A stretch of DNA of 64,000 bases from Mariannaea sp. PMI_226 (taxonomy: Eukaryota > Ascomycota > Sordariomycetes > Hypocreales > Nectriaceae). The notes under the pieces were generated by a model, which saw only the letters and a program-made list of their open reading frames with translations, had not been told where the DNA came from and made no database searches. The first letter of the stretch is position 1, and each line of letters begins with the position of its first letter. Of this stretch, positions 3,001-56,394 are shown piece by piece. The position numbers and the translations under genes are program-made. The stretch is taken from assembly GCA_024336345.1 (NCBI GenBank), contig JANFOG010000006.1, positions 2,294,001-2,358,000 on the forward strand, read 5' to 3'.

Positions 3001-5139
3001 ATTTTTTCTTTTTCGTTTTACTTCTTCTTTCCTTTTCATTGTTATATCCATCTACTGTCAAATCTGTAATCTGTACGTACGACATATCATCTCTCAAGCA
3101 ATCGGCATTACCGCACAGAGCCATAGTGGGCTGGAGTTGGTGTGCCACGCGAGTCTAGTTTCACTGTGATTCGAGTTTTGACGAAAAGATCTCAAAAGCC
3201 CGACTTTTCGCTACCAATCATGGGCACCGCATAATGAGGTCAGAGCAAACAAAACTCTTCATACATGAAAACTTGTTTCGGGATTTATCCGTGCCGTGTT
3301 CTTCCCTGTTACTCTTGATTAGGAGTCTGCAGTAACTTATTAATTTGACCCACGGACCACGGACCGTTCTTGTCTTCTTCCCCCTTTCCTTATGCCACTA
3401 ACGAGTTTGGGGGATAGCATTTGGACTCGGGCGCTGACTGATACCTAACAGGTACTGTCTGACTGAAGCCTTGGTATAATGCACAGTATGTATGATGTAG
3501 TCGCAGTGATAAAACATATCACAGGCTATTGAGGGGGGGTAAAAAACAAATCGAGAGCCCATTCAAGTCGCGCTTTGCAGGGGTGATGAAAGCTGAGCTG
3601 CTCACGGGAATGTATTTGAACATAGTCTGTACGGCGTAGGAGGTCATCCTTCATCACGGTAGGAATGCGAGTAGCCCAAACGCCCAAAACGGATTGACAG
3701 AGGATGGATGGGATGCGAGCCAAGATGGGCCGGGCCCTTCACATGGAAATGCCATTATAGCCAATGCGGAGACACTATTCGTGCAACTACCGGTAGGTTC
3801 ATGTTAATTAATTCGCTTCGTCCAGGCAATTCACATCGGGCAGATGCGATACCGAGTACGAGCGAGATTAGATTCGGGAATCGCCCTCGTACAGAGCGCT
3901 TGCAATACTACGATGACCCAGATCAGCGCCCATTTGAGATTGCCAATTTCTACGAGCCACCTGGATTTTCCCGAGCGTTTTCGCCACAGAGAGGGACGGG
4001 ATGGGAGAAGAAGAAAAAAAAATAATTCAACAGAAAGGCACAAAACCTTCAACAATTTGAGCACGGCATAATTACCCACCTTCCTCCTGTCTCTGTCTGT
4101 CTTGCGCCCGGTGGTAGGCTGTGCTGAGATCATAGGCTTCTGACCTTGCCACCGGTCTAGAACACAAGAGAGGAGGGGCCTCGCTAATGCAAGGTTCCCC
4201 ATCCCACTATGCGTCGGATTTGCACCTTAAGTCGGCGATTCTCCTCCAGAGCTCCCTCTTTGGGGGAGGCTCATTCTTAGCCCCAATCCAGTCCTGCTAA
4301 CTAGTGGCGCGAACGGCAACTTAACCTAACACAACCTTAGTTATGCTCATGGCTTTTTACGAAAAATCAAGCCTGCCTTTGCGCGGTTAAAAGGCGAAAC
4401 ATGCTCACACAGACTGTGTTAATACTTAGGCTAAGGTAGCGTAGACCGTTGAACAAACAAACTGCGGGGGAAAAGAGGGGGAACGAGGGGAAACAAAGAT
4501 ATCTGGGACGCCTGTGGGCTTGACGAATGACTCGGATTGGACTTTTGATCCTCGGAGCGTTGGAGGCGTACGTAGTTCATACGTCAACTGACCCAAGAGA
4601 ACTGTCAACACCCAACCCGCGATAAGCCTATCTCTCGTTCTCTACTGATATCATTACTCCGCAGCGTAGTTAGTACTTGTGGCCTGTCGTCAATTGATTG
4701 GTTTCCATAGGGCATAGCTCAGGTAAGGTGATTACATCGTGGTTGTAGTCATAGTCTAACCGTCTCTCTAACTTGGCTATTTGATCACTTGGCTAATATA
4801 AGAAATAGCTTAATATTATAATGTAAGCATCTTTTAGGTTTCCCAACAAGATAGTACATCTGGCTTCAATGCTCTTGGTTGAGAACAAGTTAAGTTCCTT
4901 GACCGTGACTGAGATCATGATTGTCGATATGCGACGAAGATGGACGACGATGTACAGGACCGAAACGTAGAAAAAGAGACTAAACCAAGCCAATTGAATA
5001 GTTGAGATAGATGGCCGAAATGCCCAAGTGATCGAATAGGAGTGTGAGCAAGATATGAGATGGACATCCCCGTCTAGTATAGGAAGGTGTCCTGCCCAGT
5101 TTCTCAAGAGGTGTGTATTCTAGAGTAAGCGGTCAAATA
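1..5139. other. Gene-poor left flank
   Basis: I see no supportable gene here. Open frames are short, overlap on both strands and resemble no family I know. The first 950 bases are probably the upstream region of a gene lying to the left, but nothing proves it. Simple repeats are present: a CTAC run near 953-981 and a GGAT-rich stretch near 1568-1600. The T-rich and A-rich patches after 4.3 kb lead into the decayed region that follows. Confidence 0.5.
953..981. repeat. CTAC tetranucleotide repeat
   Basis: About seven copies of CTAC, interrupted once by AGCTAC, are visible directly. It is a simple microsatellite in non-coding DNA with no evident function. Confidence 0.8.
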
Positions 5140-45089: not shown

Positions 45090-47490
45090 TTATTTACCTT
45101 CCCAACCCCAATCATTCATCACGCTAAGCCAGTGCAGTTTGCTCTTCACAGTATGCAGCACATGTCCTGCTCCCGATCCAGCATCCTGGCTGGAGCTGAA
45201 GGCTCTGGATTCCAGATCCCCCGAGGCACATTGACATTCGACTCCTACATGGTGAGGCTCTGTGGCTGGCTGTTTAGGCATTGCATATGGGTCAGTATTT
45301 CCAGGCGTTGGGAAAGTAAGCGAATTAGCGCCTGCTTCTGCGCGAGAGCCTGCAGAGCACGAGTCACAACGTTTTCTTTTGTTGCTGTTACTGTCGCGTC
45401 TTTTCCAAACCTCCAACGTCAGCTCCAAACACCTATGCGCAATTCCAGAACTGTTACCAATGGACAAGGCTTGCCATCTGTCACGGACCCAATCTCTGTC
45501 TTCCTCCTCCGTTGTCTCGCATCCAGCAATCATCAATGGCAGGATCTGGAAGATGCTCACGCGAGATCCTATCGAGACAGTGGCGAGAAGCACAAGAACC
45601 TTCTGTGCCATGCTAATAAGCGAGAGCTGGATGGGAAGTTCGGGCACAGCCTGGCAGAGAAGAAGCAAGGTAGCCCATTTATAAGCGTTCGCCGTCTGGG
45701 TTAGATCAGACGCATACGATCCAAGCAAATCACCATCTGACACTTCATCCGGGACAATATGCGGGGACCAATTCTCAATGGCAATTTTCAGTTCCACGGC
45801 GAGAGAAACAATAGTGGGCGAGTTTTGCTTTGGCTGAGCCTTGCGTACGCGACTGACTAGGTCCGCCACGCGACCAATTAAAGGGAACAATGTGCCGGCG
45901 CATCCCATGAGAGGGTCAACCTGGGCCTTTGGGTCCGAAATGGGGTGAAATAGGCCGCAGGCAGTCATGAACTCAAGATCAAGCGCTTGAACATTTTGGC
46001 AAGTGAAGCGGGTGATGACGTCCATGTATATCCAAGTGTTGGCGAGAAAACCCAGGCAAGATGAATCACCAGCGGGCCGTTGCGAGATCAGATGCATGGA
46101 AAGGGCCTTCTGGAGCAAGTTCTTGGCGCTTTTGATGTGACTGATTCCAGTAGAAGATCTTGGGTAGTACCAAGTCTGCGCGAAGCCTAGGGCGAGCGTT
46201 GCAGCCAAAGCCACCTCGAGACGCATGCTGTCGTCGTCCATAACCGAGAGTTTCTGGATGCTGGTGACGAGATGTCGAAGTCCGTTGTCCCGAAATTGGG
46301 GCAGACAGTTGGCACCCTGGAAGCAAGTCATGGCCGCAATGGCGTGGTAGAGCGCTTCATGTTCTTTGGCGAGCGGCCAGACGATTCTTCGCCACGGGTT
46401 CCCAGTGGGATCGTCCTTGATGCAAAGAACCTCGCAAATGCGGCGGTCATAAACCAGGGCAATGTTCTCCGGGCTGTCGCTGTGGAATTGTGGCTGCTGA
46501 TAAAGAGGAAATGAGGACTGCCGGCCGATCCTTGAGGGAGAAGAGGGCACAGCCAAATCGCTCTGCAAAGCTGCCAACTCGCTGTTCTTTTGAATATAAT
46601 TGTATGCCAGCACGCTGGAGTCAAGATCCAAGCCAGGCTGAGGGTCGTTAGATGCGTCAAAGTCTGAGGGTTGAAGATTTAAAAATCCCGAGAACTCAGT
46701 GATGCCATCGCGATCTGCAGTCATTTGATTGAACCTCTGCTGTGTGAATGATCCAAAGGAAGAGGCATCAACTGTGCCCACGTCTGATAACAGTATGTCG
46801 AGATCCAGTAGCTGTCCTGACGGACTGAAGGACCCATCGAATGGGGCATCAGCAGCAGATTCATTTGCTATCTGCGGGGCTGATTCGCCTTGCTGCTCTC
46901 CAATATCAGGATGCATAGATTGATCATGCTGCTCAGTGTCTTGACCGCGAGTGGTGCTGCCCAACTTTTTGCTTGTTGCGCGAGAGTCTAACGGTGTCAG
47001 CATACGACTTTATAGCGACTTCACACATTCTTCGATCCTGTTCTGTCATCGGACTTCGTCTTACATACTCTTGCGTACGGAGGCGCCCGCTTGTCCTGGG
47101 GCCTCGAATTCCTTCCACCTCAGATCCTTGCTATACCCACCGCATACCACCCGACGACGGACGCACTGCGAGCAAGACGGCTTTGCTTCATCGCACTTCC
47201 TTCGCCTTGCCTTGCAGGTAACGCACCCTATATCATTAAAAAAGGCCTTTCAGTTTCCATCTGCCAAATCATCTCGATTTCACCACCACGCCCTGTCCTG
47301 ATGACCGCTCTCTCTCTCTTCCTCCCCCCCTCTCAGGACACAGGCACTAAAAAAACAAGAAAATGGAGGAAGACGGAAACGAACCATTTCGACTCTTTTC
47401 GTGTCTGGGTTTGGGTGCTGGCCCCGCGTGGACTGGCTCGGAAAAGCCGGCAGGAAGTAACTGACGAGGCGGTTGTGTTGCTGGTGACAT
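45090..47490 (-). CDS. Zn2Cys6 transcription factor next to the split Rieske pair
   Basis: Three minus-strand exons, 47490-47385, 47227-47069 and 46987-45090, give 720 residues. Splicing the first two restores a perfect zinc cluster: EKSRNGCVTCKARRRKCDE with Cys37, 40, 47, 54, 57 and 64 at C-x2-C-x6-C-x6-C-x2-C-x6-C spacing. It continues AKPSCSQCVRRRVVCGGY and SKDLRWKEFE. The rest is a fungal-specific regulatory domain of the Fungal_trans_2 type (YDRRICEVLCIKDDPTGNPW, WRRIVWPLAKEHEALYHAIA, SLGFAQTWYYPRS-like core). Intron donors gttcgt and gtatgt, acceptors tag and ttag. Without splicing only the third exon is an obvious open frame, and that lacks the DNA-binding domain. It lies 906 bases from the end of the catalytic half gene and on the same strand, so it may control the Rieske pair; that is inference. 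Confidence 0.9.
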
Positions 47491-48395: not shown

Positions 48396-49696
48396 TCAAG
48401 CATACGATGGCTCGACTACCTTCATTTTGCTTGTCTCCACACGAGGAGAAGGGCTGGGGGATTTCTTATCTTCCTCAAACTGAGCAGCGCACAGTTCCAG
48501 GACCCGAGTTTGATAGTCTGACAGCCACACGGTTAGATATGTAAAAAAAAAAAAAAAAAAATCTTTTTGTTCTTTTTCTCTCTATGAAGCAAGAAGTTCA
48601 TATAAAGACTGGGTAAACTTACATGAGACACCATTCTCCTTGTTAGGGTTAAGGATACCCTCGGTGTAAATGCCAATGTTCAGGTTCTCCTGAGCCTTCT
48701 CGCAGAGCTCATGGTCTTCGATGGCAACATTGCGGGCAAATTTGTAGTAGTTTTCGAATTCCTCGGAGCCAACTGGGGACTTGTGGTAGTAGTCAAACTC
48801 CATGACGGTCTTCTGGGGATCTTCGGATGGACAGATACGGAAGGAAGACATGCCACCTCCGTACAAGTTCAAGGTTGAGTTGGGGAAGAAGTAGAGGAAC
48901 AGGCCATCGTCGGGCTTGCTCGTCTCGGCGAGGTGCTGAGAGTAGTTGTGCTTGTTGAGGACCTTGTACGTGGTCGGAGGGTAGATCTTGGAAAAGGCTG
49001 GATGGGCGTAGAGACAGTGAAGACACTCTTGAAAGCCGTCGGTCATGGTCTTCCAGTTGTATTTGCCTTCGTAGAGCAGCGACCGTCTGACGGGGAACTG
49101 AGTGAAATCGGCAGTAGCAATCAAGTCTTCAAGGCCGGGATAAAATTCGTCGAAAGGAAGTGTTTCGTCAGAAAGTGTGGTGAAGAGCAGTCCGGTGCGT
49201 GTTAGATGGCTGCGCATTTCGGAGCCCTGTAATGAAAACAACCCATGTCAATTATCCGTGCAAAGCTGTGTTGACAAAAACAGACTGCTGTTTTTTTTTA
49301 TTATGCTTCATCTCTTTTTCTCCCCCCCGTCCTTCTTTCTTTGTTTCTTTTTTTTTTTTTTTTCAAATAAAAGGAACTGTTGCACAACTTACATCGGCAG
49401 CAGAATAGACCTTCAAGCTCTTCCAGTCGGTAGAGCCGCGTCGAACATTGAACTTGACTTGCGCCATGTCGTAGGCGTAGTCTTCACCTACGTTTGGCCA
49501 TCGAGTCACGGAGCCGAGCAGAATCCATGTCTAAACAAGGTCAGAAAGTTTCTTGAAAAATAACCACCGCTCAGTTGAAGAGAGAGAGAGAGAAGGAGAG
49601 AAAACGCACTCGAAGAAAGACGGCTCGTCTCTCCAAGTCATAAATGGCCTTGCTGGTGAACCAGGAAGCGGGCAGGGTTGTTGGAAGAGCAGACAT
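48396..49696 (-). CDS. Choline-monooxygenase-like catalytic half of a Rieske oxygenase, lacking the Rieske centre
   Basis: Four minus-strand exons, 49696-49610, 49530-49393, 49226-48623 and 48517-48396, give 316 residues; full-length fungal relatives are about 400. The N-terminus aligns with the Rieske-domain start (SKAIYDLERRAVFLR, TWILLGSVTRWPNVG), but the [2Fe-2S] loops are gone. The first 142 residues have no cysteine at all. The catalytic domain is intact: NWKTMTDGFQECLHCLYAH at 132-150 with Glu142, His145 and His150 of the mononuclear-iron site. Later come FLYFFPNSTLNLYGGGMSSF and EDHELCEKAQENL, which likely supplies the carboxylate ligand. It ends ENGVSYYQTRVLELC, the normal family C-terminus, which appears only if the intron 48518-48622 (branch CTAAC) is removed. 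No exon with Cys-x-His could be found in the 166-bp second intron. It is divergent from the Rieske half gene. Confidence 0.88.
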
Positions 49697-49795
49697 TTTG
49701 TGCGTTGATATCCTTGGTAAAAATGAATACAACTTGTCTCTTTGGAAACTTTGCAGTGTTTATTCAAACATTCAAACAATTGAGCACATCATTAG

Positions 49796-49805
49796 ATATA
49801 TAATT
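49796..49805 (-). promoter_or_regulatory. TATA-like element of the catalytic half gene
   Basis: On the minus strand AATTATATAT lies 100 bases before the ATG at 49696. Confidence 0.45.
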
Positions 49806-51141
49806 GCCAACCTCGTGTGAAGGGTATTGCCACGACTATGGTGGTGACAATCCACGATCACCAACAAAGCCTTGGGTTCGGGGAGGCGCTTTACGAGGCC
49901 GTTCCAGGCAAAACAATCCGCTATCAGAGCTGGAACAAGTCCACGATCTCGATAGTCGATGCCATGTCCACACCGTTTTGAAGTCCCTTTTTGCGGTAAC
50001 ATCGTCGACTAGGTACTTACTTGGATGGCGCCAACCAAACTCTCCCCACCACCATCAATTTGTCTTGTTTAGGAAATCCAATCCCCTCAACCCCGCCAAT
50101 AAAAGCACTCAGCTGCTATCAGCCGGTCATTAAAAGTCACCGCCCCGGTGCCTATCTGTTGAGGGATGTGACCTGGAATTCCTCTTCAGAGACATCTAGG
50201 TACATTTGGCATGCAGAAGATATCGAGACGGCCCGAGTGTGCATACCAAAGCAGTGATATGTTTAATATAGCAGGCCGACAACCGGATCTCCCTGGTCTT
50301 CTAGAAAGTCCCCCAATTCGTATTATTCATGGTCCCAACGAGGTCACGCGTGGTATCCCCCATTTCCGATGTCTATTTCCACAACACTATTTTAGTTACT
50401 CCCGCCTGGAAAAGGCTTTGATGGGCAATTGAGTGAGGAGAGTAGAGAATTAGGAGGGGGGGAAGATTTTCTTATTTTTTTTTTTTTTTTTTTTAGAGTT
50501 GCTTCCTTGTGTGTGTGCGTTGCGCATGTTAGCCAGCCGTCTTTTGTCCACAATAACGTCAACAAAAAATAGCAAACTTGGAATAATCAAACACTTTGAA
50601 ATCACATACATTTCTCTCTATCCCTCTCCCATCCGGCAATTAACGTAATTAGTGCCCAACGATGAAACCCACTTATCCCCGGCCCAAACAACGGGTTTCA
50701 GCTTCCCAAAACGATCAACACATCCTGTCCCTACTCAAACGGCCAAAGAGAGGAGAGACAAGAGGAGAGGACCAGGGGAGGTTGGGTTCTTTTCGTTTCC
50801 GACTACTGTGTACGTGTACGTATGTACTAGCAGAATGACTCGGTCCCCATGTTTTAGGTAGGCAACTAAATAAATTTGGCACCAAAATCACTCCCGCTAT
50901 ACCGTTGTCTATCCCTGGGGGACCGACCTACTGATTTGGGAATCGCTAAACGACTGGCACGGGACAACACCACGAGACGCCGTCTTCACTCTGATACACA
51001 TGCCCATAACCAATTTTGATTTTCCTCCCATGCCTCAAGCGCACCGATGGATAATCGATGAGAAATCGATGGGCACCTGATGGATACTTGATGGAGCTTC
51101 CTGGATAACTTAGGCTTGGCCCCCTCACCCGCCATGGATTC

Positions 51142-51150
51142 ATATATATA
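51142..51150 (+). promoter_or_regulatory. TATA box of the Rieske half gene
   Basis: ATATATATA, followed by AATCC, lies 104 bases before the ATG at 51254. A C/T-rich leader (TTCACTTCACTTCGAC) follows, as in many fungal promoters. Confidence 0.55.
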
Positions 51151-51253
51151 ATCCTCTGTCACTGTGCATAACAGCTTCATCCCTCGCTCAAGCTAAGCTT
51201 CCCGTTCACTTCACTTCGACTTTCAATCTTCTTCGTCTTGGAGCGTAGTCAAG

Positions 51254-52782
51254 ATGTTTGAACTTGCCCCTCACCTGTTCTTCTGCGGCCTTGCGCTGCT
51301 GGTGACGGCCATCTCACTAAACTCTCGCCGTCTGCTTCATCTGATCAATTCGACGTTCAATCCCAACGCCGCCAGCCGCCCCTCGTCATACGTACCAAAC
51401 GATCAGATCAGCAAACAAGCACCTCCTCGTCTTCTCCAAGGATGGTGGACCAAGGATTCGGTATTCCAGCTCGAGCAGCGGGCCATTTTCAGCAAGGTGA
51501 GTCTAAACATGCGTAAAACATCGGATTTTCTCCTTTTTCTTTTTTTTTTTTTTGAACTCCAGCTCACATTTTCGCATTTGTAGACCTGGATTTGCGTGAG
51601 CCATCAGAGCCGCTTCGTCAACCCTGGCGACTATGTCTCGTATGAACTCGCTGGCTTCCGGTTCTTCGTCATCATGGGCAAGGACAAAGTCATTCGCACG
51701 TTCCACAATGTCTGCCGTCACCGAGCCTTCCCCATCACCAAGAAGGCCACTGGTTCTTCGACTGTGCTTGGATGCGGCTATCACGGATGGAGCTACGACT
51801 CCAAGGGCCAGCTCATCAAGGCACCGCAGTTTGATCGTGTGCCAGGCTTTTCAAAGAGTGAGAACAGCCTGTTCGAGATTCATACCAAGGTGGACAAGTA
51901 TGGCTTCCTTCACATCAACTTTAACGGTACCAAAGAAGCCGCCGACACCCCTATTGCTCCTGAGAGAATCGTTGGCCGGCCTGCCAAGATCAACCCCAGT
52001 TCCCGATTTCTAGGCAGTCTGGAATACAAGGGAAAATTCAATTGGAAGGCAGCAGGTATGTTTTTTTTACTGAACACTCCGCCTTTGGATCTGCAAAAGA
52101 AAATGGACTCAGCTGCTAACTGCTGTGCACAGCAAACGCCCCCTTTCAGGTTGGTAATGAGACCTCAAGCTCCTTTCCCAGTAGAACCAGTGGCAAAATT
52201 CAGTCTGTTTCCACTGGCAGCTCTACCCCTGTTGGCCAGCTTCACTTCTTCCCTTTGACTACCATTTACACGAAAGCCGGTAGCGCATTCTGGTACCAAA
52301 TCACATACGCCCCAGATTCGGCAAAGCAGACCACGGTACGATGCGATGTCTATTCTGCAAAGACCAATGACCCCTTGCAGTTTGAAGGCGCGGTCAAGGA
52401 AAACCTGGACAGCCTGGTTAAAGCGAACATTGAGTCCTTTGAGAAGGCATACGCCAAACTTGCCAGCTCCAACTACGACGTGCCCGAAGATGGCGGTTGT
52501 AGGTGCACCTCAGTCCTTATACACAGACATCTTGGCTAACCATTAACGCAGATGATCAAGCAGAGATCGCTGAGGTGGTAGGCGCCCATCTCAAGAAGGA
52601 GACCATCGAAGGACGCGAGATCAGGCCAGCTGCGGTGCAGCAATGCAAGAGCGCAGCTTTCATGCAGGCGGAAGGAAGTAAGTCTATATTGTGAGCTCCG
52701 AAATTGAGATGCCACTTGTACTGACTCAACCATAATAGTTGCTGAAGCAATTGAATGTGGCAGCACAAAGCTGTCCTGGTGA
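51254..52782 (+). CDS. Rieske [2Fe-2S] half of a Rieske oxygenase, lacking the catalytic iron motif
   Basis: Five exons, 51254-51496, 51584-52055, 52133-52498, 52552-52677 and 52739-52782, give 416 residues. Residues 5-22 (APHLFFCGLALLVTAISL) form a membrane anchor or signal anchor. The Rieske domain is perfect: Cys125-x-His127 in FHNVCRHRAFPITKK and Cys145-x2-His148 in LGCGYHGWSYDSKGQL, 17 residues between them. Then, where relatives read NWKTLMDGYQECLHC..H, this protein reads FNWKAAANAPFQVGNE. The two iron-binding histidines and the acidic residue are absent. The rest keeps the SRPBCC-like fold pattern (FFPLTTIYTKAGSAFWYQIT, RCDVYSAKTNDP, VKENLDSLVKANIESFEKAY). Splice sites are canonical with CTAAC branches at introns 2 and 3. 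No skipped exon with the iron motif is present in the 77-bp intron 2. It could donate electrons to its divergent neighbour. Confidence 0.88.
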
Positions 52783-54213
52783 GTTGGCCGCCAAAGCAGA
52801 GCGTGTCTGGCCACCGACATTTGAAGTATAATAAGCGACAATCTCTTGCCATTTCTGAGCGAAATCTGGTTGAATTTATATATGAAGCAAACTATTATTT
52901 GAGTTGGCCCATCTTTCTTGAGCGGCAGAGGACCGAGTCGTCGCATGAGAGGACAAGATTCTAAATCTTAAAATTGGGCACCACGGGGAGGGGGCTCGCT
53001 CTCTCGAGTCCATTGAAGCATGGTGCAGCTGAGAAAAATCAGAACTCGGAAATTAAAATCAGAAAAATTACGTTAGATTGAGAACCTACCTCCTCCTATG
53101 CAATAATGGTGATTTGCTACAAATTCATGGTCTCTCGGCTTTGACTTTGTGTACCACAATAAAATGACCGGGGGGATGGGAAGCTAGAATATCAGAATGA
53201 TATGAATAAGAGAATGATATTGTCAAATGGCATATCAAACCAAATAACAAATTACAGATGAATTGGTATGAGGAAATTGAACCGTATTCATCACAGTTTC
53301 ACCAAAACTCTCTAGGGACCTTCGATAGTTGAAGCTGACGGGAAAGGTCCTCTGCTCAACGTTAACTAAGATGGAACACCATCCCACTCCATCTAAGGGC
53401 GGGAAGTGGCTCACTAACGCCTCCACTTATTGCTTATATGCGCGCTAGATACTTATTAGGGATAGAACACACAATGAATATGTAGCTCATAAAACGCACG
53501 TATCTGGCTGTTCCCTGGTTTCACTCTTCAGGTTTCTGTGGCCTGGGTAATGGAGTATCGTGATATGATGACGCTGGGCGTGAGCACAGAAGACCAGCTA
53601 GTATGCAGGGGCACAGGGTTCCAACACAGGAATAGGAATAGAAAAAAATTTGTCGCCTCATGTACAGTAGGATTGGAAGTTATAAATGTGATAGGAACCC
53701 CCTTGGTGTGTTCGCTTACGTTAAACTCCTTAGTACACAGCTTCCTCCAACTGCGTATTTCTGAAGCCAAAGACAGGCTGATTGGCATACCATGGGCACT
53801 GTTCTTCGCGTGCACACCAAGAATCAGTGGAGCAGTGTCCAAAAAGGCCTGAATATAGTCTATACTGATGCTTAGTATATCCTCTGAGATCATTACTATT
53901 TATATCTGAATGATTGGAAATCTAATAATCTGTACGCATGAGTACTAATGAAGAAGCCACTAGCTAGACACATAAGCATCATATATGTCTCCGAGATGAA
54001 GCTCAGTCAGACGAAGGATACACAAGGTCTTTTTTTTTTTTCCGTGTACAGGCTTGCAACATTGGCACTGGAGGTTGGCTACCGCTTGGTTATTAGGAAC
54101 AAAATCAGCCATAGTCAGAGATCCCTAATGGCATATAAAATGAACTGTTGCCTCTTGTATTCTCTAGCGTCTCTTGCCAGTGCCGGAGAGTTAGGCTGCA
54201 GGCCCAAATCAAA
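52783..54213. other. Intergenic between Rieske half and SGNH hydrolase
   Basis: No firm gene. Opposite frames at 53528-53893 (minus) and 53538-53852 (plus) both look partly protein-like. I could not decide between a remnant and chance. AT-rich overall. 54134 has a TATA box for the next gene. Confidence 0.4.
54134..54140 (+). promoter_or_regulatory. TATA box
   Basis: TATAAAA lies 80 bases before the start ATG of the SGNH hydrolase gene. Confidence 0.55.
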
Positions 54214-56394
54214 ATGCGTTTCTCACATCTTTTTGTCTTGCTCACGCAAGCACTTGCGACTCCAACCCCCAGATCCAACGTCTTATCCCAAGTCGTATCC
54301 AAGCGAGACGTAGGCAAACTTCCCAAGAATTTTATCCTCGCCAACTTTGGAGATAGTTACTCGGCAGGCATTGGCGCGGGAACTTTCTGGCAAGGACAGT
54401 CACCTGATGCAGGCCGTAACAACAAATGTGCGCGTATGGCCGGCTCGGTCCCAGCCGTCCTTGGGGATACGTACAAAGATAATATGGAGGAACAATTATT
54501 CATGTCTTGCTCGGGCGACGTTATGAAAGACCTCGATAACCAAGTTAAGCTCATGCTGGGAACCCGTCCTCAGGTTGCCACACTTTCCATTAGCGGCAAT
54601 GACTTCAACTTTGGAAACGTCGTGGTGAGTGCTGTGCATCTTCTTTCTTTCTTTTTCTGGACCAGCAGTAGCTATTCATGGATGGACGACTCTTGCTAAC
54701 TATTCTGGAGAAAAACTGTGTTTATGCTAAAAGACAGTGGCTTGATACTGAGGCTGCCGCCCAAGGTCGCTGTGACCAAGAAATCCAGAAATCACAAAAT
54801 GCAATTAATGACAACAGCAAGTGGGCCGAATACGAGAGCAAGCTTCACCTTATCCTGGACGCGCTTGATGATCAGGGAGGACTTCTATACATCACCAACT
54901 ATGCAAAGTTCTTCGCGACAGATATGTCAGACACCGATGCATGCGCCCAGGCGACCTTCTTCAAAACTGGATGGGTCAACAGCCTATACGGCATCTTGAA
55001 GATGAATAAAAACAACCGGCAAACTATCAATAATCTAGTCCAACAAGTCAACCAAAAGATGTCTGCGTCGATAGATAACGTCAAGAACGGGCTACCCGCG
55101 TCGAGAGAGATCGTTCCTATCGATATTGATCCACTCTTCGAAGGTCATCGATTCTGTGAACCTAACAATGATCCCTGGGGTTCGGACGATGACCGAGTTT
55201 TCTTTTATGATCTTTCCTCCACTCTAGAAGCAAATAGTGGCTGGGATGGACTGACGGGCGATGACCTCTGGGCTCCTGAACCACCAGAGAAGGATTCAGA
55301 CGGACTAGTCCGTCCTTCTTGGGACAATTTCCAGCAAGCTTCTGTTTTCCATCCAAAGAAGGCTGCTTACCTGCAGATTTTGAGCGCTATTCAGAATAAT
55401 CTGGGGGGAAGGTTAGTACTGGTTGTGAAGGAAATGTTGCCGAAACATCCCAAAGACTAATCTCCGCATAGATTCAGCGACGTTGACCCCAACCCTTCGG
55501 GTACCAATATTGTCAGTCGAAGAATTCCTGATGCTACTCATAAGATTCTTGAAAACTTGGCTAACTTTTACTATCACAGCATGTGAATAAAGGCTGCATC
55601 GTTATTAATGATAGTATCCGATGTCAAGACGGCGATGCCTATAGTAAGTTCATTGACTATCCTCTCCGGGAGGCCAAAAATACCCCTCTCTCAATTTTTC
55701 ATCGACCATAGTTGTGCTGACATGAAGAAGATGTTGCTCATGGCCGCTGGCCCACGTCCAAGGCTACATTCTACGCGAAATTCCCTGGTGATAATACAGT
55801 TGATTATATGGTTACTCCTGGGTGTGAACTTCATGCCGACATCCCCGCCAATTACGGAGATATGTACTTTGGAGAGGACAATTGTCTTTACGATTCAGGT
55901 GGTAAGGCTTCTCCAAGAGTTGTTCCCATTCATACTTATATCTGATTAATTTTCATATTATAGGCAACAAAGTCCTGGACCAATGTTGCCAGAACCAAGG
56001 AACCACGCAAGTGTTGAACCCATACTTTGACCACCTTTTTGGCCCTCGAGTACCGTGTGGGCCTGGCACGGATAGTGATTCTCTTGCCCAGGCTGTTGGG
56101 CAGCAATGCGTACGAATCTGGGCGGACCATAATGCTGGGGGTGGCGGCTGGGTTGCCCAGTTCAAACCTCAAAGTCCGAATAACTGTGACGGCACTTGCT
56201 GGCCTTGGCCCGCCGGCTATGGTGGAATTGAAGCTATTGGTGACGGAACTTATGGGACAAACTGCGCAACGTACTCGGACTTGAACTGCCAAAACCAAAT
56301 TGGCTCGACTGGAAATGCGGTAGAGCATCACCCTGCTGTTCTCAAGGACAGTGAAGGCTTGGGACATTCTGTCAAATGCTTTTTCCATTGCTGA
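54214..56394 (+). CDS. Secreted SGNH/GDSL hydrolase with Cys-rich C-terminal extension
   Basis: Six exons: 54214-54624, 54711-55411, 55472-55511, 55580-55643, 55728-55901 and 55964-56394, giving about 606 residues. Residues 1-15 are a signal peptide, with a KR pair at 30-31 as a likely Kex2 site. GDSYSAG at 46-52 holds the nucleophile Ser48 (block I), SISGNDFNFG is block III, and the VFHPKK segment, His351, is block V. Such enzymes hydrolyse lipid or carbohydrate esters outside the cell. The second half has no motif I can name: HVNKGCIVINDSIRCQDGD, then FYAKFPGDNTVDYMVTPGCE, CLYDSGGNKVLDQCCQNQG, CVRIWADHNAGGGGWVAQFK, CDGTCWPWPAGYGG, and a CFFHC end. It is rich in Cys, so disulfide-bonded. The third intron donor is gtcagt and the fourth acceptor (55727 or 55730) is uncertain. 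Confidence 0.8.

What the first reader, a model, noticed from the sequence alone, without database searches (positions are those of the whole stretch)
48396..52782. Two divergent genes look like complementary halves of one Rieske non-heme iron oxygenase
Seen: the minus-strand gene has an intact catalytic domain (NWKTMTDGFQECLHC with His145 and His150) but no cysteine in its first 142 residues, so no [2Fe-2S] Rieske centre. The plus-strand gene has an intact Rieske centre (Cys125/His127, Cys145/His148) but its catalytic domain has lost both histidines and the acid (FNWKAAANAPF). Known: in Rieske oxygenase trimers, electrons pass from the Rieske cluster of one subunit to the mononuclear iron of the next through an acidic bridge. 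Inference: the two proteins assemble into a hetero-oligomer in which each supplies what the other lost. I do not know whether such a split oxygenase has been described.
Basis: partly seen in the sequence, partly recalled or inferred. Interest (0 to 1): 0.88.

Follow-up and report, generated by a model that had tools for sequence, protein, structure and literature searches.

The report
Fungal oxygenase split into two proteins
Many moulds carry two linked genes that each encode half of an iron enzyme, one with the electron-relay centre and one with the reaction centre, and the two very probably work together as one oxygenase that has been taken apart.

Summary
The minus-strand protein (A1, 316 aa) has an intact mononuclear-iron site and no Rieske motif. 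The divergent plus-strand protein (R1, 416 aa) has an intact Rieske centre and a catalytic domain without its iron ligands.

This is not a local accident. In A1's 120 listed homologues the iron ligands and the bridging glutamate are invariant and none has a Rieske motif. In R1's 120 listed homologues each Rieske ligand is kept in at least 119. Twenty R1/A1 pairs share a contig (0 for R1 and other Rieske oxygenases); 10 of 10 pairs with both tags visible are consecutive. Orientation varies.

Best explanation: R1, a predicted membrane-anchored pseudo-alpha-subunit, passes electrons across a subunit interface to A1, which carries marks of Rieske group V (quaternary ammonium substrates).

Beyond the finding: the same genome has a second complementary pair (A2, R2; unlinked) and one intact enzyme in view. 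A common Rieske loss of A1 and A2-type proteins is rejected (AU p = 0.0056).

The bacterial NdmCDE enzyme is the precedent for a split-off Rieske centre, but there it sits on the reductase.

The parts
48396..49696 (-). A1: Rieske-less catalytic alpha-like subunit, 316 aa; exons 49696-49610, 49530-49393, 49226-48623, 48517-48396
   Evidence: PF00848 only, 75.4 bits; GT-AG introns
49218..49430 (-). approximate place (codons about 64-78, across the second intron) where intact relatives carry the Rieske core; none is encoded here
   Evidence: alignment; median SWY-to-NWK distance 121 residues in A1 rows against 175 in intact rows; six-frame check
49002..49040 (-). catalytic motif of A1: D138, bridging Glu142, Cys143/Cys146, iron ligands His145/His150
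   Evidence: 120 of 120 listed homologues keep each
48714..48716 (-). codon of the third iron ligand, Asp246 of A1 (AIEDHELCE)
   Evidence: 120 of 120 listed homologues; ligand role by alignment with intact enzymes
49697..51253 (.). region between the two divergent start codons, a possible shared promoter
   Evidence: gene models; promoter function not tested
51254..52782 (+). R1: Rieske-bearing pseudo-alpha-subunit, 416 aa; exons 51254-51496, 51584-52055, 52133-52498, 52552-52677, 52739-52782
   Evidence: identical to P0121
51260..51325 (+). hydrophobic N-terminal segment of R1 (approximate), predicted membrane anchor
   Evidence: hydropathy only: best 19-residue mean 2.02; 75 of 79 non-fused homologues with a long N-terminus reach 1.6
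51713..51784 (+). Rieske [2Fe-2S] ligands C125/H127 and C145/H148
52037..52188 (+). FNWK then a degenerate stretch where the two-histidine motif of a catalytic domain should be (interrupted by intron 52056-52132)
   Evidence: N 119, W 120, K 120 of 120; the following columns are variable; ligand columns compared

Best explanation
A1 and R1 are the two obligate parts of one fungal Rieske oxygenase. R1 is a predicted membrane-anchored, catalytically dead alpha-subunit whose [2Fe-2S] Rieske centre takes electrons from a reductase. A1 is a Rieske-less alpha-subunit that holds the catalytic Fe(II). In ordinary Rieske oxygenases electrons already cross from the Rieske centre of one subunit to the iron of its neighbour, so losing the Rieske centre in one subunit and the iron site in the other leaves a working R1-to-A1 interface. 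Electrons pass through the Glu142 bridge to the His145/His150/Asp246 iron, which activates O2 to oxidise a substrate, most likely a quaternary ammonium compound. SHOWN: the two complementary losses, their conservation, linkage in many species, correlated divergence, the kept bridging residue. INFERRED: the complex, electron transfer, the anchor, the substrate class. If the parts sit in a three-membered head-to-tail ring, only one R1-to-A1 interface can be productive per ring, instead of three.
For: Complementary losses fixed in both families. Linkage: 20 shared contigs (lengths over 5000) between 120 R1 and 120 A1 rows, against 0 between the R1 rows and 120 rows of A2-type and intact oxygenases, although a dozen or so species names stand in both of those lists; 10 of 10 pairs with both tags visible are consecutive. 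Mirrored divergence over 22 pairs: rho 0.652, 0 of 5000 permutations reach it. E142 is kept in 120 of 120 Rieske-less proteins; its counterpart E205 in CntA links the iron to a neighbour's Rieske centre 12.2 A away, and E205 mutants were inactive (PMC7948474, abstract and passages). The R1 profile aligns with intact enzymes through the C-terminal half too (whole alignment probability 100%, E 3.6e-74, much of it from the Rieske half), so the scaffold seems kept while the ligands are lost. Group V marks: Tyr/Phe at 140 in 120 of 120 and the Cys143/Cys146 pair in 120 of 120, matching Y203 and C206/C209 of CntA (PMC7948474, PMC10952381, passages). No Rieske match coincides with any of the three Fer2 loci of this genome, so no reductase-borne Rieske donor is in view.
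Against: Mirrored trees also follow from shared species history, and no control family was run for that test. 100 of 120 rows on each side have no same-contig partner in view, which clustering and list limits may or may not explain; A. fumigatus, for example, appears among the listed A1 rows only. R1 is less conserved than A1 (mean column identity 32% over 62 rows against 54% over 44). The window's A1 is missing from the listed proteins. R2 or the intact enzyme of the same genome could also serve A1.
Confidence: 0.77

Rival explanations
1. R1 is a general membrane-bound electron donor that serves several Rieske-less subunits (A1, A2), and A1 can also be served by R2 or the intact enzyme: a mix-and-match network rather than one fixed pair.
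For: The same genome holds A1, A2, R1, R2 and one intact enzyme; Rieske-less relatives arose at least twice.
Against: R1 shares a contig with A1 in 20 listed cases but with A2-type or intact enzymes in 0; A2 and R2 are closer to each other (35% over 366 aa) than to A1 and R1.
Confidence: 0.15
2. The two are non-enzymatic or independent pseudo-oxygenases: A1 binds iron for another reaction (for example a peroxide-driven one), R1 is a separate redox protein, and their linkage reflects a shared pathway only.
For: I found no activity reported for either; CntA can run a peroxide shunt (passage in PMC10952381).
Against: The bridging Glu142 is invariant in 120 of 120 A1 rows, which a Rieske-free enzyme should not need.
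Confidence: 0.06
3. Artefact: mis-spliced models or decaying pseudogenes.
For: The window's A1 is absent from the listed deposited proteins.
Against: Open frames, GT-AG introns, family-wide conservation, no complete missing motif in six frames, R1 model identical to a deposited one.
Confidence: 0.02

Closest known systems
NdmCDE, 7-methylxanthine N7-demethylase of Pseudomonas putida CBB5
   Same: NdmC is a catalytic subunit without a Rieske cluster; the Rieske centre is on another protein of the complex (PMC4408171, passages).
   Different: There the Rieske domain is fused to the reductase NdmD and a GST-like NdmE takes part; here it sits on a pseudo-alpha-subunit, and no Rieske match coincides with a Fer2 locus of this genome. 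[quoted passage not shown]
CntA, carnitine monooxygenase (group V Rieske oxygenases)
   Same: Best solved relative of R1 (1e-27) and third for A1 (8.7e-9, after 3vca_A and 4qup_A); bridging Glu, aromatic residue and cysteine pair match A1.
   Different: CntA has both centres in one chain and is a head-to-tail homotrimer (PMC7948474, abstract).
NdmA/NdmB heterohexamer (alpha3 alpha'3)
   Same: Two different alpha-like subunits in one assembly (PMC12445004, section 6).
   Different: NdmA and NdmB are each described as Rieske [2Fe-2S] monooxygenases with their own non-heme iron (PMC4408171, passages).
Fungal 'choline monooxygenase-like' and other two-domain fungal Rieske oxygenases
   Same: Names such as choline monooxygenase are attached to rows of both families; fungal CMO-like proteins are discussed in PMC6157903 (passages), and ChnagG of Cochliobolus in PMC12130555 (passages).
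   Different: Those passages describe proteins with both domains; I saw no mention of Rieske-less or catalytic-less members. The glycine betaine monooxygenase model GbcA matches A1 and R1 in part, far below its cut-off (42.3 and 76.6 bits against 670).

Membership tests
Rieske oxygenase alpha subunit | Rieske ligands CxH...CxxH | tested here: not met
   A1: none, and 0 of 120 listed relatives; R1: met
Rieske oxygenase alpha subunit | 2-His-1-Asp iron site in the catalytic domain | tested here: not met
   R1: ligands lost, profile similarity kept; A1: met
Rieske oxygenase alpha subunit | bridging acid next to the iron ligand | tested here: met
   A1 E142, 120 of 120; R1 lacks it
Rieske oxygenase alpha subunit | C3 head-to-tail assembly | not testable with these tools
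   structure prediction switched off
Group V (CntA-like) Rieske oxygenase | aromatic residue two before the bridging Glu | tested here: met
   A1: Y 99, F 21 of 120
Group V (CntA-like) Rieske oxygenase | cysteine pair beside the iron site | tested here: met
   A1: C143 and C146, each 120 of 120
Group V (CntA-like) Rieske oxygenase | oxidises a quaternary ammonium substrate | not testable with these tools
   no assay
NdmCDE-type split oxygenase | catalytic subunit without Rieske centre | tested here: met
   A1
NdmCDE-type split oxygenase | Rieske domain carried by the reductase | tested here: not met
   the six Rieske and three Fer2 matches of this genome do not coincide
NdmCDE-type split oxygenase | GST-like structural subunit | not tested
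   -

The most novel reading that the evidence does not exclude
Filamentous ascomycetes have repeatedly taken Rieske oxygenases apart into dedicated electron-relay pseudo-subunits and dedicated catalytic subunits that assemble as hetero-oligomers. In this one genome four of the five alpha-like genes found are half-enzymes in two complementary sets, and the linked A1-R1 module is inherited, and perhaps transferred, as a unit. Because a three-membered ring allows only one relay-to-catalyst contact, these would be Rieske oxygenases with one active site per trimer, or with a new ring geometry, tethered to a membrane by the relay subunit.
Probability: 0.4. Interest if true: 0.88.

Novelty: new variant of a known kind. 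Interest (0 to 1): 0.77.

Why it matters
Rieske oxygenases are the standard example of electron transfer between like subunits. A natural enzyme in which the donor and the acceptor sit on different proteins would let each side be mutated, labelled or titrated alone, which homotrimers do not allow. It would also give function to large fungal families now named 'hypothetical', 'Bet v1-like' or 'choline monooxygenase', and explain why single-gene tests of either member would fail.

Tried and rejected
Missing exon or wrong frame: rejected by the six-frame motif check and by family-wide conservation. Two of 113 non-fused R1 rows gave an [ED]xxHxxxxH match, but more than 120 residues after NWK, so not at the catalytic place.

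Gene fusions as proof of interaction: seven R1 rows have both Pfam domains, but R1's own start and hydrophobic segment lie inside several of them, three Aspergillus models (P0191, P0193, P0196) skip the stretch with the histidines, and an A. niger strain has two separate models (P0084, P0185); I treat most as annotation run-ons that show tandem A1-then-R1 order.

Origins: one Rieske loss for A1 and A2-type rows together is rejected (p = 0.0056); the groups were chosen after I had seen the first tree, which weakens AU p-values. A1+R1 as one clade is not decided (p 0.749 on 112 rows, where the held tree scored higher than the quick free tree; p 0.127 on 52 rows). All A2-type rows as one clade (p 0.129) and R1+R2 as one clade (p 0.192) are not rejected. 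Two tests did not finish; they were run on the smaller set.

NdmD-like donor: not found in this genome. Pathway from neighbours: a fungal transcription-factor gene and a GDSL-like hydrolase frame flank the pair, and nothing points to a substrate.

Seven were aimed at fungal, Rieske-less or split cases and three at NdmC, CntA and NdmA/NdmB. From the listings and the passages I read, none describes this pair; the library holds only open-licence papers, so this is weak evidence of absence.

Rows dropped: the first tree used 16 of 120 A1, 20 of 120 R1, 37 of 39 A2-type and 21 of 81 Rieske-bearing rows, with the window's two, the genome's R2 and intact enzyme, and 14 bacterial rows; the careful tree used 52 rows. 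20 of 80 bacterial loci passed my frame filter.
Full report
THE OBSERVATION. The two genes were rebuilt from the DNA. A1 (minus, 49696-48396, four exons, 316 aa) matches only PF00848, the catalytic domain; R1 (plus, 51254-52782, five exons, 416 aa) matches only PF00355, the Rieske domain. R1 as spliced equals a deposited protein of Mariannaea sp. PMI_226. A2 of the same genome equals another from that strain, on a contig of 5532987 bases, which is the length of contig C1 here, so the organism is that fungus. A1 has no copy among the listed proteins (best full-length hits 72-78% identical).

CONSERVATION. Among the 120 listed A1 homologues (of 337 hits), D138, E142, C143, H145, H150 and D246 are kept in 120, and no row has CxH...CxxH. 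Among the 120 listed R1 homologues (of 619 hits), C125, H127 and H148 are kept in 119 and C145 in 120, while the columns after an almost invariant NWK are variable. At the columns of E142, H145, H150 and D246, 25 of 25 intact fungal and bacterial rows carry the ligand or bridge. In 10 R1 rows no printed residue is Glu at the first column or His at the next two (the printed lists are cut at six kinds and cover 8 or 9 of the rows), and D246 is Ile, Val or Leu in all 10; R2 has gaps at three and Gly at the fourth. The alignment is uncertain in that stretch of R1. The R1 profile still aligns with intact enzymes into the C-terminal half. Of 113 R1 rows without fusion, 79 have a long N-terminus and 75 of these have a hydrophobic 19-residue segment; 1 of 120 A1 rows has one near its start.

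LINKAGE. Exact contig-length matches (over 5000 bases) between the two 120-row lists: 20, each within one species by name. The control, R1 rows against the 120 rows (A2-type and intact oxygenases), gives 0; A1 rows against those give 1. The other 100 rows on each side show no partner; each row shows one contig of a cluster and the lists are cut at 120, so this is neither proof nor disproof of solitary genes. Ten pairs show both locus tags and all ten are consecutive, one of them in steps of ten: nine of the 20 and F. oxysporum FOCG_15059/15060, whose rows show different contigs. By names I recall rather than looked up, the consecutive tags are in Hypocreales, Eurotiales, Onygenales and one leotiomycete; Dothideomycetes give shared contigs and one run-on model. 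Order differs: run-on models read A1 then R1 in seven rows. Pairwise distances of A1 and R1 in 22 genomes correlate (rho 0.652; best of 5000 permutations 0.506), which shared ancestry alone could partly give. Both genes of Coleophoma crateriformis, which I recall as a leotiomycete, fall inside sets otherwise of Hypocreales (with Grosmannia in the R1 set), which hints that the pair moved as a unit; not tested further.

A SECOND SET IN THE SAME GENOME. Searches of the 42.2-Mb genome with both Pfam families and both proteins (only best candidates are scored, so counts are lower bounds) give five alpha-like genes: A1, R1, an intact enzyme (C7), A2 (C1, 361 aa, two-histidine motif kept, Rieske core deleted) and R2 (C14, 350 aa, Rieske kept, two-histidine segment deleted). 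The other three of six Rieske matches (C19, C25, C20) look by eye like other Rieske proteins, not alpha-subunits. A2 and R2 lie on different contigs. One search shows A2-type proteins in Clonostachys, Dactylonectria and many Penicillium and Aspergillus: by motif, of its 120 listed rows (410 hits) 39 lack the Rieske motif and keep the catalytic one, 80 have both, and 1 has an altered catalytic motif. One, from Fusarium zealandicum (P0325), keeps most of the domain but has lost ligands in place. A common origin of A1 and A2-type Rieske loss is rejected (p 0.0056), so it happened at least twice; a single origin within A2-type rows is not rejected (p 0.129). How widely R2-type proteins occur was not searched.

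MECHANISM. In CntA, the best solved relative of R1 and third of A1, Rieske and iron are 44 A apart in one chain and 12.2 A apart across neighbouring chains, joined by Glu205, whose mutants were inactive (PMC7948474, abstract and passages). A1 keeps that Glu although it has no Rieske centre. It also keeps the aromatic residue and the cysteine pair that those papers tie to group V (PMC10952381, passages), hence the guess of a quaternary ammonium substrate. Three Fer2 matches exist in the genome; one is a MOSC, NAD-binding and Fer2 reductase by Pfam (C21) and one looks alike by eye (C1); none coincides with a Rieske match. In a head-to-tail ring of three, any mixture of two R1 and one A1, or the reverse, has exactly one R1-to-A1 contact; this is reasoning, not data.

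AGAINST KNOWN SYSTEMS. NdmCDE is the published case of a Rieske centre on another protein (PMC4408171, passages). There it rides on the reductase; here on what looks like a former alpha-subunit. The review table lists C3 homo-oligomers, alpha3 beta3 enzymes and one alpha3 alpha'3 (NdmA/NdmB) (PMC12445004, section 6). I found no report of the fungal pair in the searches listed under Tried and rejected.

VERDICT. Observation confirmed; interpretation well supported in its core and corrected in three details. New variant of a known kind. What is missing is biochemical: complex, electron transfer, substrate.

Noticed in passing
L020 (G000:C14:165500-173500) about 3683-4790 and L021 (G000:C1:2326500-2334500) about 3265-4440: A second complementary pair of half Rieske oxygenases in the same genome, on different contigs (R2 and A2).
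   Followed up: yes
P0325 (Fusarium zealandicum FZEAL_8508): Rieske oxygenase of 406 aa whose Rieske ligands are partly lost in place rather than by deletion, a possible intermediate.
   Followed up: partly
P0348, P0349, P0351, P0354: A further Rieske-less group (399 aa; the one named row is Penicillium atrosanguineum) that keeps a filler stretch in place of the Rieske core and falls apart from other A2-type rows in the quick tree.
   Followed up: partly
P0008 and P0123 (Coleophoma crateriformis): Both members of the pair group with Hypocreales although I recall the host as a leotiomycete; possible joint horizontal transfer.
   Followed up: partly
L115 (G000:C21:2446138) and L116 (G000:C1:5402398): Reductase frames with a Fer2 domain (MOSC and NAD-binding domains by Pfam for the first), candidate electron donors for the oxygenases.
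   Followed up: partly
window 45093-47249, minus: Fungal transcription-factor frame (Fungal_trans_2), with a cysteine-rich frame at 47061-47249 that looks like a zinc cluster, downstream of A1.
   Followed up: no
window 54139-54699, plus: GDSL-like hydrolase frame downstream of R1 (below the Pfam cut-off).
   Followed up: no
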